Source: Candidatus Competibacter sp.
GTDB taxonomy: Bacteria; Pseudomonadota; Gammaproteobacteria; Competibacterales; Competibacteraceae
Assembly (NCBI GenBank): GCA_029624815.1
Contig: JARSSH010000030.1
Span: 24,677-88,676, forward strand
DNA: 64,000 nucleotides
Direction of reading: 5' to 3'
Below are positions 29,896 through 38,865 of this stretch, piece after piece. Numbering within the stretch: the first letter of the stretch is position 1; each line of letters starts with the position of its first letter. The translations under genes and the position numbers were made by a program. Under the pieces are notes generated by a model. It saw nothing but the letters and a program-made list of their open reading frames with translations, was not told where the DNA came from and did not search any database.

Positions 29896-30420
29896 TTGGG
29901 GTTGAAAACGCTGGCGACGTGTTCGGACGGAACCAAAATCGAAGCGCCCCGCTGGTATCGGAACCAGCAACGGCTGGCCGAATTCCAGCGCAAGCGCAAG
30001 CCACGCAAGGTTCGGAAGCTGCACGCCAAGATCGCCAACCGTCGCTTGGATTTCCTTCACAAGGAACCGACCAATCTGGTCAACGACCGCGAGTTGATCG
30101 TGGTCGGCGACGTGTCCAGTTCCAAGTTGACGAAAACGACCATGGCGAAATCCGTGAACGATGCCGGATGGTCCATGTTCCGCCACCTTCTTGAATACAA
30201 AGCGATCGCGCGGAAGGTGGCGTACCGTGAAGTGTCGGAACGCTTCACAACTCAAGCCTGTTCCTGTCGCGGCGCAATGGGCGGCCCGAAAGGCCGAAAG
30301 GGTCTTGAGATAAGGGAATGGGTGTGTGACGAATGCGGCGCGGTTCTCGACCGCGACGTGAACGCCGCGCTGAACATTCTCCGATTGGGGCATCAATCGC
30401 TACTCGCTGAAGGGCGGTAG
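29896..30420 (+). pseudogene. TnpB (OrfB, IS200/IS605 group), N-terminally truncated
   Basis: 174 codons equal to the C-terminal half of TnpB. It starts inside RuvC motif I (SLGLKTLATCSDG, with the catalytic Asp missing), keeps a RuvC-II strand LIVVGDVSSSKL without the usual ED pair, and ends with RuvC-III DRDVNAALNI. The zinc ribbon has CDEC, but the first pair reads CSCRG instead of CxxC. TnpB is an RNA-guided nuclease carried by transposons. This copy lacks half of the protein and the first catalytic residue, so it is inactive. No TnpA is nearby. Confidence 0.8.
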
Positions 30421-35294: not shown

Positions 35295-36536
35295 ATGAAC
35301 GCAAACAACATGGAAATCTACCTGGTCGGCGGCGCGGTGCGCGACGAGTTGCTGGATCTGCCGGTCCGGGAGCGTGACTGGGTGGTGGTCGGGGCCACGC
35401 CGGACGAGCTGCTGGCGCGCGGCTTCCGGCCGGTCGGCAAGGATTTCCCGGTGTTCCTGCACCCGGACACGCACGAGGAGTATGCGTTGGCCCGCACCGA
35501 GCGCAAGACCGCGCCCGGCTACCATGGGTTCAGCGTTCACGCCGCGCCGGAGGTCACGCTGGAAGACGACCTGCGGCGTCGCGATCTGACCATCAACGCC
35601 ATGGCCCGCGGCGCGGGCAGTCGCCTGATCGATCCGTACCACGGCGCCCGCGATCTCGAAGCCCGCTGGTTGCGCCATATCTCGCCGGCGTTCGCCGAAG
35701 ACCCGGTGCGCATTCTCCGCGTCGCCCGGTTCAGTGCCCGCTACGCGCCGTTGGGTTTCCGGGTCGCGCCGGAAACGCTGGATCTGATGCGGGCCATGGT
35801 CGCCGGCGGCGAAGCCGACTACCTGGTGCCGGAGCGGGTCTGGGCGGAAACGGTGCGCGCCCTGGGCGAATCGCGGCCGGAGCGCTTTATCGAAACCCTG
35901 CGCGACTGCGGCGCGCTGGCGCGGATTTTCCCGGAACTGGATCGACTGTTCGGCGTACCCCAACCCCCGGCGCACCATCCCGAGATCGACACCGGCGTTC
36001 ATACCCTGATGGCGCTGGCGCTGGCCGCGCGACTGGGGGCGGACCCGGTCACCCGCTTCGCCGTGCTGGTCCACGATCTCGGCAAGGGCGCCACCCCGCC
36101 CGAGGAATGGCCGCGTCATCACGGTCACGAACAACGCGGCGCCGACCTGGTCCGCTCCTTCTGCCAGCGCTTGCGGGTTCCGAACATGTACCGCGAACTG
36201 GGAGTGGTGACCACCCGCTTCCACACCCACTGCCACCGCGCGCTGGATCTGCGTCCGAAAACCCTGATCAATACCCTGCTGGGGCTGGATGCCCTGCGCA
36301 AGCCCCAGCGTTTCGAGCAGTTTCTCCTCGCCTGCGAGGCCGATGCCCGCGGTCGCCTGGGGCTGGAGAATCGAGATTACCGGCAGGCCGAACTGTTGCG
36401 GTGGGTTCGTCGGGCCGCCGCCGGCGTCCAGGCCCGGCCGCTGGTGGAACAGGGTCTGAGCGGACTGGCATTGGCCGAAGCCTTGCGTCAAAAGCGGCTG
36501 GCGGCGATCGCCGAAGCACGGCGGGCGTTCCAATAA
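35295..36536 (+). CDS. cca: CCA-adding tRNA nucleotidyltransferase with HD domain
   Basis: 413 residues, as in E. coli (412). It adds or repairs the 3' CCA of tRNA. The class II motifs are present: [28 protein letters not shown] and [11 protein letters not shown]. The C-terminal half has an HD phosphohydrolase domain ([35 protein letters not shown]). An ATG at 35310 (MEIYLVGG) matches the E. coli start better, and neither has a strong ribosome site. A TATAAT lies at 35260-35265. It is directly followed by an RNA locus with tRNA-like structure, a suggestive neighbour for a tRNA 3'-end enzyme. Confidence 0.95.
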
Positions 36537-36538
36537 AC

Positions 36539-36566
36539 TTGACTCGATTATTTTTCTGGGTACAAT
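36539..36566 (+). promoter_or_regulatory. sigma-70 promoter of the RNA locus
   Basis: TTGACT (36539-36544) and TACAAT (36561-36566) are separated by 16 bases, each one mismatch from consensus. It begins two bases after the cca stop codon and predicts a start near 36573. Confidence 0.72.
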
Positions 36567-36572
36567 CCGGCC

Positions 36573-36771
36573 CCCCATGAATACGATAAATCGCAACCCC
36601 CATTTTGCTGCCGTCGCCGGCCGGTGCTTGCCGGCGGCGCGCGATTGCGCGCCAGCGGTGGACCCGACGTAGATCCCACGAGATTCAGTTCGGGGGGGCC
36701 GCGCCAGGCAACCCTCCGAACGGGAACCCATAACCCCGGTCGGCGGCTTGCCTTCCGGGGTTTCGTTTTTT
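36573..36771 (+). ncRNA. candidate structured RNA of about 200 nt, own promoter and terminator
   Basis: Downstream of a good promoter, the 5' CGGCCCCCC (36568-36576) can pair with GGGGGGCCG (36693-36701). Between them lie two coaxial hairpins, CGCCGGC/GCCGGCG (36615-36636) and GGCGCGC-GATT-GCGCGCC (36636-36653). A CCC/GGG hairpin follows at 36712-36724, then an intrinsic terminator. It does not match 6S, 4.5S, tmRNA or RNase P RNA as I know them. It could be a free small RNA or an attenuating leader for the tRNA-like RNA and slipin gene beyond. A 31-codon frame from ATG 36577 has no ribosome site. Confidence 0.55.
36732..36771 (+). terminator. rho-independent terminator of the structured RNA
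   Basis: AACCCCGG (36732-36739) pairs perfectly with CCGGGGTT (36755-36762) across a 15-base loop and is followed by TCGTTTTTT. Confidence 0.8.
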
Positions 36772-36888
36772 CCGCAACCAGTTCGAAGCAGCCCCGCCGC
36801 CGCACAGCGGCACCGGTTCTGAATGCCGGTCCGGCACGCCCACGCTAACCATGGCACGGCGTGTGTCGGGCGACGGCGGGACTTCGAA

Positions 36889-37013
36889 GCGAGGAAAGTA
36901 GCTCAGTGGGTAGAGCATCTGGCCACGAACCAGACGGTCGAGGGTTCAACTCCCTCCTTTTCACTGGTTAAAGCCCTGAACAGGCTTGCGGTTCGAATCC
37001 GCTCCATCCTCGC
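36889..37013 (+). ncRNA. tRNA(Arg)-like RNA, not a normal tRNA
   Basis: 36893-36962 folds as a full cloverleaf: acceptor GGAAAG/CTTTTC, T8, D arm GCTC-AGTGGGTA-GAGC, anticodon arm TCTGG-CCACGAA-CCAGA, five-base variable loop, T arm GAGGG-TTCAACT-CCCTC. It resembles tRNA-Arg(ACG), but position 33 is C instead of the universal U, the acceptor is six pairs, and no CCA or suitable discriminator follows. A further hairpin AAGCC-CTGAACA-GGCTT and a second T-arm-like GCGG-TTCGAAT-CCGC follow. The ends GCGAGGA (36889-36895) and TCCTCGC (37007-37013) pair perfectly and would enclose everything. A tRNA mimic, or a decayed tRNA gene pair, are both possible. Confidence 0.55.
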
Positions 37014-37039
37014 AACACCCGGGAGCCGTCCCGGCGGGC

Positions 37040-37231
37040 GGTCGTCGGCCTCGCGCTTCGGCGTGAGCTTGAGGACCGACCCGCAACGCCCGCGCGGCTT
37101 TGCGCGGCGAGCAACGGATCGATGCCGACGATCGGCCAGCCGGTCGCAACGACAGCGGGCAAGGAGGCCTCGGGTTGTGGCCGGCCCGCCGCTCATCGGC
37201 CCGGTCCGCCCCGTCGCCCGCCACGCGGGCG
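37040..37231 (+). other. structured leader between the tRNA-like RNA and slipin
   Basis: Part of a 389-base stretch (37014-37402) without a gene. Strong hairpins: GGTCG/CGACC (37040-37081) enclosing CTCGCGC-TTCG-GCGTGAG with a UUCG tetraloop; CCGCGC/GCGCGG (37090-37107); CGCCCGC-CAC-GCGGGCG (37215-37231). The segment 37232-37390 shows nothing further that I can name. The dense pairing suggests an RNA product or a long structured 5' leader. Confidence 0.45.
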
Positions 37232-37402
37232 TGGGACGCGTTCCCAATCCTTCACTCAACAACCGGCAGGAGCCCAGTCACGATGACATCCTGACCTTCG
37301 GCGGTGGCGGGCCGGAAACGGCGCCGATAGCAACACGCCACGCTCGCCCGCCGGATGCGGCGGAACAGGAAGACTGAAAATACGTTCACAAGGAGAATCA
37401 AT

Positions 37403-38551
37403 ATGTTGGGATTCCAGCGAATCGTTATTGCCCAAAACGAGCGTGGGCTTCACCTATACGACCGCCGGTTGGCGGCCATTCTGGAACCGGGGATCTACCG
37501 CTGGTTCGATCCGCTGCGCCGCCACGAGGTGCAGCGCCATGACCTGACCGTGGCCGAGTTCGATCACCCGTGGCTGGATGTGCTGCTGCGGACCGATCCG
37601 GCTTTGATGGAACGGCACTTCCAAGTGGTGGAAACCGGCGAACGCCAGGTCGGCCTGGTCCACAAGAACGGCCGCCTGGAAAAAGTGCTGCCGCCGGCGA
37701 CCCGTCAAGCCTACTGGCGCGGCCCGGTCGACGTGAAGGTGGAGATGCTGGATATCGGCGCCGACTATGCCCTGTCGCGGGCGCACGCCGCCCTGCTGGC
37801 GCGGCCTTCGGCGATGCTGGCCAAGGTTCTGACCGGCTTCATCCTGACCGCCGAGGTCGAAGACCACCACCTCGGTCTGCTGCTGGTGGATGGCGAACTG
37901 GTCCGCACCCTGCCGCCCGGTCTGCACGCCTTCTGGCGCTTCAACCGGGCGATCAAGGTGGAAACCGTGGATCTGCGCTTGCAAACCGTGGAAGTCTCCG
38001 GCCAGGAAATCCTGACCAAGGACAAGGTCAGCCTGCGGGTCAATCTGTCGGCGGTGTACCGGATCGCCGATCCGGTCAAGGCACGCGGCGAACTGGGCAA
38101 CATCGCCGAGTACCTGTATCGGACCTTGCAGTTCGGTTTGCGGCAGGCCATCGGCACTCGTCCGCTGGACGCACTGCTGGGCGACAAGGATGAGCTGGAC
38201 CGGATCGTGAGGGAATACGCGGCGGAACGAGTCGGCGCGCACGGTCTGGAGCTGGAGACCCTGGGCATCAAGGACGTGATCCTGCCCGGCGAGATGAAGG
38301 ATATTCTCAACCAGGTGGTCACCGCCGAAAAGGCGGCGCAGGCCAATGTCATCCGTCGGCGTGAAGAAGTCGCCGCCACTCGCTCGCTGCTGAACACGGC
38401 GAAGCTGATGGAGGAAAACCCGATCCTGCTGCGGCTGAAGGAACTGGAGGCGCTGGAAAAGGTGGTGGACAAGGTCGAGCGGCTGACCGTGTTCGGCGGC
38501 CTGGATGGCGTGTTGCGCGACACGGTGCGCATCGATCTGCCGGCACATTGA
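37403..38551 (+). CDS. slipin-family SPFH/band-7 protein
   Basis: 382 residues. It opens MLGFQRIVIAQNERGLHLYD, has the SPFH core around residues 160-300 (VETVDLRLQTVEVSGQEILT, KVSLRVNLSAVYRI, YLYRTLQFGLRQAIGTRPLD) and a C-terminal coiled coil (VIRRREEVAATRSLLNTAKL). Unlike most slipins there is no clear N-terminal membrane helix, a trait of the longer slipins found near RtcB RNA ligase genes. SPFH proteins form oligomeric scaffolds. AGGAG seven bases before ATG 37403 sets the start. It lies downstream of the tRNA-like RNA and is followed by a hairpin and repeats; no rtcB is present. Confidence 0.82.
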   Translation: MLGFQRIVIAQNERGLHLYDRRLAAILEPGIYRWFDPLRRHEVQRHDLTVAEFDHPWLDVLLRTDPALMERHFQVVETGERQVGLVHKNGRLEKVLPPATRQAYWRGPVDVKVEMLDIGADYALSRAHAALLARPSAMLAKVLTGFILTAEVEDHHLGLLLVDGELVRTLPPGLHAFWRFNRAIKVETVDLRLQTVEVSGQEILTKDKVSLRVNLSAVYRIADPVKARGELGNIAEYLYRTLQFGLRQAIGTRPLDALLGDKDELDRIVREYAAERVGAHGLELETLGIKDVILPGEMKDILNQVVTAEKAAQANVIRRREEVAATRSLLNTAKLMEENPILLRLKELEALEKVVDKVERLTVFGGLDGVLRDTVRIDLPAH

Positions 38552-38715: not shown

Positions 38716-38865
38716 ATACCGTTTCTCAATAGATTTTATGATTCAGAGGGGTAGGGCGGGTTAGGGCGTCGGCCCGTAACCCGCCGATTTGATTGTGACT
38801 TCGGCGGGTTACGCTGCGCTAACCCGCCCTACGCGGGAAATATAAAACTTACCGGGAATTGGTAT
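38716..38865 (+). repeat. 150-bp mobile repeat, family 1, copy 3
   Basis: Same 150-bp ATACC...GGTAT element as at 29613-29762 and, inverted, 21562-21711. It is inserted between the slipin terminator and the 3' end of the ubiT-like gene. Confidence 0.88.

What the first reader, a model, noticed from the sequence alone, without database searches (positions are those of the whole stretch)
36889..37402. tRNA(Arg)-like RNA plus hairpins leading into a slipin gene
A cloverleaf with correct arm lengths, T8, a canonical T loop and a five-base variable loop resembles tRNA-Arg(ACG). It has C instead of U at position 33, a shortened acceptor and no CCA. It continues into a second anticodon-like hairpin and T arm, and the ends GCGAGGA/TCCTCGC pair across 125 nt. 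Three strong hairpins then precede a slipin gene. Slipins and Y RNAs with tRNA-like modules are known from bacterial RNA-repair loci with RtcB or Ro. Here the RNA and slipin stand without them, next to cca. This could be an undescribed slipin-tRNA mimic unit, possibly sensing tRNA damage.
Basis: partly seen in the sequence, partly recalled or inferred. Interest (0 to 1): 0.82.

Follow-up and report, generated by a model that had tools for sequence, protein, structure and literature searches.

The report
tRNA-mimic RNA paired with slipin
In front of a slipin gene (a ring- and cage-forming protein family) sits a conserved RNA that copies the shape of a tRNA but cannot work as one; across many bacteria the pair travels with RNA-repair genes, so it looks like an RNA-protein partner of tRNA repair, a kind already sketched by others but hardly studied.

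Summary
Window 36892-37002 holds a tRNA cloverleaf (Rfam 57.5 bits) followed by a truncated second tRNA module, 400-510 nt before a slipin gene. It is not a tRNA: no CCA (all 43 complete tRNAs recovered from this genome encode it), mismatched 1-72 pair, C33, and a canonical tRNA-Arg(ACG) elsewhere. It is not a decayed operon: over 26 sequences the fold is 93.8% paired, with compensatory changes at 18 pairs (0 of 500 shuffles). Of 76 informative slipin relatives 64 have a tRNA-like structure upstream on the slipin strand; 11 more keep a T arm. At least 42 of 80 relatives carry linked rtcB, some with RtcR and sigma-54 sites; this genome has rtcB elsewhere, no Ro, no RtcR. The window is thus a stand-alone version of the slipin plus tRNA-like RNA module of RNA-repair systems (a kind I recall from Burroughs and Aravind 2016; not held). 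Possibly new: tandem-module anatomy, a reduced form in about 30% of complete E. coli genomes, and a slipin with three SPFH1-type beta repeats and no evident membrane segment, laid out somewhat like major vault protein. Binding and function are untested.

The parts
36539..36566 (+). sigma-70 promoter-like site TTGACT-16/17-TACAAT between cca and the RNA; the likely local promoter (no RtcR in this genome)
   Evidence: conserved as TTGACY..TATAAT in Competibacteraceae; 1 found, 0.4 expected
36572..36771 (+). conserved structured leader or small RNA that ends in an intrinsic terminator (stem 36732-36739 with 36755-36762, then a T-run); either a separate small RNA or an attenuator in front of the tRNA-like RNA
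   Evidence: aligned in Competibacteraceae and, more loosely, Chromatiaceae; similar terminator seen in L195. The scan did not list it (loop longer than its limit)
36806..36870 (+). 5' element of the RNA: AGCGG then hairpin ACCGG-TTCTGAATG-CCGGT (36812-36830) and a GC-rich closing region
   Evidence: strict motif in 18 of 76 leaders against 0.2 expected in shuffled leaders
36892..36963 (+). tRNA-like module 1: cloverleaf, anticodon-position ACG, C33, A-A at 1-72, no CCA
36964..37002 (+). truncated tRNA-like module 2: D-loop-like CTGGTTAA, anticodon-like hairpin 36971-36987, T arm 36988-37002
   Evidence: (second T-arm stem 100% paired in 26 sequences, with C-G/G-C/U-A changes)
36889..37013 (+). 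outer helix GCGAGGA (36889-36895) with TCCTCGC (37007-37013), an alternative to the module 1 acceptor stem; present only in part of the Competibacteraceae
37019..37087 (+). conserved GGGA..UCCC hairpin (37019-37034) and a following long hairpin
37391..37395 (+). ribosome-binding site AGGAG of the slipin gene
   Evidence: (sequence), conserved
37403..38551 (+). slipin-family SPFH protein, 382 aa: three SPFH1-type beta repeats (about 4-50, 73-120, 147-190), SPFH2 (about 194-293), long helix (296-359), conserved C-terminal tail; no evident transmembrane segment
35295..36536 (+). cca (tRNA nucleotidyltransferase), lineage-specific neighbour; no evidence that it belongs to the unit

Best explanation
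The interval is the non-coding 5' region of the slipin transcription unit. It encodes a conserved structured RNA with one complete and one truncated tRNA-like module, which no longer serves decoding. The RNA and the slipin are a cognate pair, comparable to Y RNA with Ro: the slipin, a member of the ring- and cage-forming SPFH family, is proposed to bind the RNA and to act as a scaffold that brings tRNA-handling enzymes such as RtcB to damaged tRNAs, the mimic occupying or recruiting tRNA-binding sites. In this organism the pair stands alone; rtcB lies elsewhere in the genome. Shown here: the RNA is real, conserved by covariation, not a tRNA, and associated with this slipin subfamily and with rtcB/rtcR/rtcA. 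Inferred: transcription together with the slipin gene, binding between the two, cage formation, and a role in tRNA repair.
For: Covariation 0.461 against 0.169 in shuffles, 93.8% paired, 18 pairs with changes on both sides, 0 of 500 shuffles. tRNA-like structure upstream of slipin on the slipin strand in 64 of 76 informative loci, on the opposite strand in 0; chance per locus about 0.4%. None in 14 other SPFH-gene loci of related genomes. In a sample of 274 genomes drawn evenly from the class, 13 further slipin loci: 11 match the RNA model (L193 and L194 appear to be the records behind L044 and L048, of which L044 and L048 are in the model), and L195 has a degenerate form. rtcB in at least 42 of 80 loci; in 10 of the loci with rtcB it lies upstream, in the rest downstream, while the RNA always lies directly before slipin, so the RNA goes with slipin rather than with rtcB. 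Sigma-54-like sites upstream of the RNA in loci with divergent rtcR (L103, L105, L107, L112, L093, L090, L159, L161). Among 36 genomes, 10 of 10 with this slipin have an rtcB match against 10 of 26 without. Not a tRNA: 43 of 43 complete own tRNAs end in CCA, canonical Arg(ACG) at G000:C2; pair 1-72 is formed in only 11 of 35 while pairs 4-7 are formed in 31-35 of 35; loops of 6 or 8 nt in 10 of 86 modules, pyrimidine at 37 in 13 of 76.
Against: No expression, binding or phenotype data. The RNA could act only in cis. RtcB is not linked in this genome or in its close relatives. The slipin is a single gene here, so the repair partner is unknown. The co-occurrence test with rtcB ignores shared ancestry. 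Thermodynamic folding alone does not give the cloverleaf. The structure model is a monomer; SPFH proteins usually sit on membranes.
Confidence: 0.6

Rival explanations
1. Cis-acting leader: the tRNA-like fold is an operator on the slipin mRNA, bound by slipin, RtcB or a tRNA enzyme to control expression, as the thrS leader does with threonyl-tRNA synthetase (own knowledge).
For: Always upstream of slipin on the same strand; a terminator-bearing leader lies just before it; no clear terminator between RNA and slipin.
Against: The modules lie about 250-650 nt from the start codon rather than over the ribosome-binding site; two modules and a 5' element are conserved as one RNA body; the comparable Y RNAs act in trans.
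Confidence: 0.22
2. Decoy: the mimic is a bait or competitive inhibitor of anticodon nucleases, so the anticodon sequence changes fast between species.
For: Anticodon positions vary while the tRNA body is kept; for YrlA the same idea was raised (PMC7790460); RNA-repair context.
Against: The loop still has a consensus (CU-NAU-AA; CAU in 26 of 76, GAU in 10), loops of 6 or 8 nt would be poor baits, and in enterobacteria the module has shrunk to a single T arm.
Confidence: 0.15
3. Ordinary tRNA gene or a decaying tRNA operon that happens to precede slipin.
For: ARAGORN and Rfam both call it a tRNA; several relatives have real tRNA arrays just upstream.
Against: Fold kept by compensatory changes; no CCA, 1-72 mismatch; fixed position before one slipin subfamily over Gamma- and Betaproteobacteria.
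Confidence: 0.02
4. A Y RNA (YrlA type) whose Ro protein has been lost.
For: Both carry tRNA-like modules and occur in rtc operons (PMC7790460).
Against: No Y RNA family match in Rfam even at E up to 1; no TROVE/Ro gene in the genome.
Confidence: 0.03

Closest known systems
SPFH/Band-7 proteins with a cognate tRNA-like RNA in RtcB RNA-repair systems (Burroughs and Aravind 2016, NAR, gkw722; from memory, paper not held)
   Same: SPFH protein, tRNA-like RNA encoded next to it, RtcB/RtcA/RtcR/nucleotidyltransferase neighbours in relatives
   Different: Here no linked rtcB, RtcR or RtcA; sigma-70-type promoter and a terminator-bearing leader instead of sigma-54; second module truncated. I could not check how far the earlier authors described the RNA.
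Bacterial Y RNA (YrlA) with Rsr/Ro in rsr-yrlBA-rtcBA operons (PMC7790460)
   Same: Non-decoding tRNA-like RNA next to an RNA-binding scaffold in an RtcR-controlled repair operon
   Different: Protein is an SPFH family member, not TROVE; no match to Y RNA families
P. aeruginosa PaFlo8 (PA14_60630) in the rtc locus (PMC13086221)
   Same: SPFH gene embedded with rtcA, rtcB, rtcR
   Different: That paper does not mention a tRNA-like RNA; its locus was not available here
Eukaryotic vault particle, major vault protein (MVP) with vault RNA
   Same: Beta-repeat domains, then SPFH domain, then long helix; small RNA partner. Foldseek aligns the model to MVP chains over 412-470 columns, E 6e-10 to 3e-8
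   Different: Three repeats, not nine; the repeats match the SPFH1 subdomain of other SPFH proteins (Z 5-6) better than MVP domains (Z 3.5); no sequence match to MVP
tRNA-like leader of thrS (own knowledge)
   Same: tRNA mimicry upstream of a gene
   Different: Here a complete cloverleaf plus second module, far from the ribosome-binding site

Membership tests
Functional elongator tRNA | Encoded CCA end, as in the other tRNAs of this genome | tested here: not met
   43 of 43 complete own tRNAs end in CCA; this one does not. CCA addition after transcription is not excluded
Functional elongator tRNA | Seven-base-pair acceptor with paired 1-72 | tested here: not met
   A-A at 1-72 in the window; paired in only 11 of 35 relatives
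Functional elongator tRNA | U33 and a 7-nt anticodon loop with purine 37 | tested here: not met
   C33 in the window; among relatives 10 of 86 loops are 6 or 8 nt and 13 of 76 have a pyrimidine at 37
Slipin plus tRNA-like RNA module of RNA-repair systems | SPFH/Band-7 protein | tested here: met
   PF01145, E 4.9e-28
Slipin plus tRNA-like RNA module of RNA-repair systems | Conserved tRNA-like RNA next to the SPFH gene | tested here: met
Slipin plus tRNA-like RNA module of RNA-repair systems | Linked RNA ligase RtcB | tested here: not met
   rtcB is on another contig; linked in at least 42 of 80 relatives. The window is therefore filed as a stand-alone relative, not as a full repair operon
Slipin plus tRNA-like RNA module of RNA-repair systems | Slipin binds the RNA | not testable with these tools
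   needs pull-down or binding assay
Bacterial Y RNA | Match to a Y RNA family model | tested here: not met
   only tRNA and chance hits up to E 1
Bacterial Y RNA | Ro/Rsr (TROVE) protein in the genome | tested here: not met
   none in G000
Major vault protein | MVP repeat domains N-terminal to an SPFH domain | tested here: inconclusive
   same domain order, but repeats align better with SPFH1
Classical membrane slipin/stomatin | N-terminal hydrophobic hairpin | tested here: not met
   highest 19-residue mean hydropathy 1.46, at 130-148, and that stretch is not hydrophobic in L017; hydropathy only, no dedicated predictor

The most novel reading that the evidence does not exclude
This slipin subfamily forms a soluble, closed or half-closed SPFH cage, built from tandem SPFH1 beta repeats, an SPFH2 domain and a long helix, that holds a dedicated tRNA-mimic RNA: a small bacterial counterpart of the vault ribonucleoprotein, serving tRNA repair and present in reduced form in about 30% of complete E. 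coli genomes.
Probability: 0.18. Interest if true: 0.88.

Novelty: new variant of a known kind. Interest (0 to 1): 0.6.

Why it matters
It turns a loosely known association (SPFH protein, tRNA-like RNA, RtcB) into a defined RNA with a covariance model, a consensus structure and a list of genomes, including cultured Variovorax, Steroidobacter and Thiorhodococcus strains and ordinary E. coli isolates, so that its function can be tested. If the slipin really packages the RNA, it would offer a bacterial model for RNA-containing SPFH cages and help to explain what such particles do. It also gives annotation pipelines a reason not to count these RNAs as tRNA genes.

Tried and rejected
Rfam beyond tRNA: nothing credible in the window at E up to 1; GOLLD appears only in the tRNA array of L041, so the RNA is not GOLLD. 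Ro and RtcR in this genome: none. Coding in the leader: an open frame 36823-37377 exists, but relatives differ by indels that are not multiples of three, so I reject it. Slipin in phages: no match. E. coli and Citrobacter leaders: the full model does not match, only a T arm and 5' hairpin remain. Strong 'hypervariable anticodon' claim: weakened, the loop has a CU-NAU-AA consensus. Vault homology: no sequence match; the N-terminal repeats alone give no Foldseek match below E 0.05 and fit SPFH1 better than MVP. Integration-site explanation: rejected because strand and order relative to slipin are fixed. PADLOC: no hit for slipin or the associated nucleotidyltransferase. Literature: no held paper that I found describes this RNA, but most subscription and non-commercial-licence papers are not held.

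Full report
What is there. The window comes from a Competibacteraceae genome (close relatives are named Candidatus Competibacter and Contendobacter). Between cca (35295-36536) and a slipin gene (37403-38551) lies about 870 nt of non-coding DNA. In it ARAGORN and Rfam find a tRNA at 36891-36965. Read by hand, it has every arm of a tRNA, with T8, a five-base variable loop and a standard T loop, but C33, an A-A mismatch at 1-72 and no CCA. It runs straight into a second, shortened tRNA-like unit: a D-loop-like stretch, a 5-bp anticodon-like hairpin and a second T arm (36964-37002).

Is it a tRNA? No. All 43 complete tRNAs recovered from this genome end in CCA, and a normal tRNA-Arg(ACG) sits on contig C2; the mimic is not a recent copy of any of them (best global score 49 over 75 positions). 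In 35 relatives of the same architecture pair 1-72 forms in only 11, pairs 4 to 7 in 31 to 35. Ten of 86 anticodon loops have 6 or 8 nt, and 13 of 76 seven-base loops carry a pyrimidine at 37. Reported 'anticodons' change between close relatives: ACG, CAT, CAG, ACA, GAG, TGG, TGT. The loop is not random, however: it leans to CU-NAU-AA.

Is it a relic? No. On 26 sequences the named structure is 93.8% paired, with 18 pairs showing changes on both sides; none of 500 shuffles reaches any of the measures, and sliding the partners destroys the signal. The second T-arm stem is paired in all 26, with C-G, G-C and U-A at one position. A covariance model built from these finds the RNA in loci that were not used to build it, for example L070 (108 bits), L058, L071, L200 and L198. 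The window sequence is among the training rows, so its own 102 bits is by construction. Ordinary tandem tRNAs reach about 70 bits with this model, so scores near that value are not specific by themselves.

How tight is the link to slipin? A scan of named genomes gave 80 loci with the same slipin subfamily, nearly all Gamma- and Betaproteobacteria. Of 76 with enough upstream sequence, 64 have an ARAGORN tRNA within 750 nt upstream on the slipin strand and none on the other strand; 11 of the other 12 show at least a T-arm motif. By chance about 0.4% of loci would. Fourteen other SPFH genes from related genomes have none. In an even draw of 274 genomes of the class, 14 besides the window's own have this slipin (one, G038, already known as L017); of the 13 new loci 11 match the model and one more has a degenerate copy. 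Two of the 13 appear to be the same records as training loci.

Neighbourhood. At least 42 of the 80 loci have rtcB within the fetched flank, usually just downstream of slipin but upstream in 10; the RNA lies directly in front of slipin in either order. RtcR is encoded divergently in several loci, with sigma-54-like sites (TGGCACG-N-GC) about 0.5-0.6 kb upstream of slipin, ahead of the RNA. In L070 and L099 the order is rtcB-rtcA-RNA-slipin. Fifteen loci have an HNH endonuclease gene nearby, mostly upstream, and several have long tRNA arrays. In this genome rtcB is on another contig; Ro and RtcR are absent. Across 36 genomes rtcB is found in 10 of 10 with this slipin and in 10 of 26 without; this ignores shared ancestry. 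In the Competibacteraceae a sigma-70-type promoter and a structured stretch ending in a terminator precede the RNA.

Anatomy across lineages. Many betaproteobacterial and other loci have two tandem modules in which the first is the odd one (6-nt loop or missing D arm) and the second a full cloverleaf; in the gamma-type loci, including the window, the first is full and the second truncated. In Citrobacter and E. coli only the 5' hairpin and a single T arm are left, again behind a sigma-54-like site and before slipin and a nucleotidyltransferase gene. Matches covering at least 80% of this E. coli stretch occur in 1,621 of 5,426 complete E. coli genomes; K-12 MG1655 lacks the genes. I read these as reductions of one ancestral two-module RNA; that is inference.

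The protein. It has no evident membrane segment. Profile comparison shows that residues about 4-50 and 73-120 are two further copies of the beta repeat that opens the SPFH domain at about 147-190 (HHalign E 4e-11 to 3e-12). The AlphaFold model (mean pLDDT 80.5, pTM 0.57) gives three beta repeats, SPFH2 and a long helix. Foldseek places it with stomatin, HflK and prohibitin, and also aligns it over a long stretch with major vault protein; one VIA alignment to MVP runs over model residues 6-347 (Z 11.1, rmsd 7.7, 247 aligned). The repeats alone fit SPFH1 of other SPFH proteins (Z 5-6) better than MVP domains (Z 3.5). MVP domains are described as unique to the vault, and SPFH proteins as forming half cages on membranes (PMC13100048). 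So the resemblance to a vault is one of layout, and I use it only as the novel case.

How it probably works. Shown: a conserved, non-decoding tRNA mimic, tied to one slipin subfamily and to RNA-repair genes. Inferred: the two form an RNP; the slipin oligomer is the scaffold and the mimic engages tRNA-binding sites of repair enzymes or displaces damaged tRNA. The main rivals are a cis-acting leader and a decoy for anticodon nucleases; a working tRNA or a pseudogene is effectively excluded.

Known or new? From memory, Burroughs and Aravind (2016) named SPFH/Band-7 proteins with a 'novel tRNA-like molecule' as parts of RNA-repair systems; I could not read the paper. PMC13086221 notes an SPFH gene in the P. 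aeruginosa rtc locus, and in Anabaena a slipin gene, rtcB and a tRNA operon are all repressed by TrcR (PMC10272220). The window is therefore a stand-alone variant of a known kind. The covariance model, the tandem-module anatomy, the enterobacterial reduction and the three-repeat slipin may be new, but I cannot prove that they are undescribed.

Noticed in passing
window 36539-36771: Conserved sigma-70-type promoter, roughly 170-nt structured RNA and intrinsic terminator between cca and the tRNA-like RNA; similar terminator in Chromatiaceae (L066, L074, L075, L078) and in L195. No Rfam match. Possibly an attenuator or a separate small RNA.
   Followed up: partly
L160 4307-6760, L163: Slipin plus nucleotidyltransferase cassette between yjbD and lysC in E. 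coli, with a sigma-54-like site, a 5' hairpin and a single T arm in the leader; matches over at least 80% of the stretch in 1,621 of 5,426 complete E. coli genomes, genes absent from K-12 MG1655.
   Followed up: yes
L041 779-1262 and 847-2736: GOLLD RNA (150.7 bits, gathering 150) inside a tRNA array upstream of the slipin unit.
   Followed up: no
L041 2648-3355, L043 1470-2090 and 13 other loci: HNH endonuclease gene, mostly about 1.0-1.4 kb upstream of slipin, in 15 loci, often with tRNA arrays.
   Followed up: partly
L075 2254-2964 (-) and 11 other loci: Divergent helix-turn-helix regulator gene about 1 kb upstream of slipin, a possible replacement of RtcR.
   Followed up: partly
L058 4604-5572, L059 1644-2819, L065, L067, L069, L095: Gene of unknown family next to slipin and rtcB in six loci; no convincing Pfam match.
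   Followed up: partly
L032 / G000:C38 16421-17536: The genome's rtcB stands away from slipin, next to a gene that looks like a Mut7-C-type RNase protein (by eye, not tested).
   Followed up: no
window 38757-38836: Inverted repeat (TAGGGCGGGTTAG.. / ..CTAACCCGCCCTA) downstream of slipin, resembling a small mobile or repeat element.
   Followed up: no
window 29941-30036 (-): ARAGORN calls a tRNA-Ala(TGC) inside a transposase-like open frame; Rfam does not support it, probably a false positive.
   Followed up: partly
window 36889-36895 / 36957-36963 / 37007-37013: The outer helix and the acceptor stem of module 1 share 36892-36895 and exclude each other, so two folds could alternate.
   Followed up: partly
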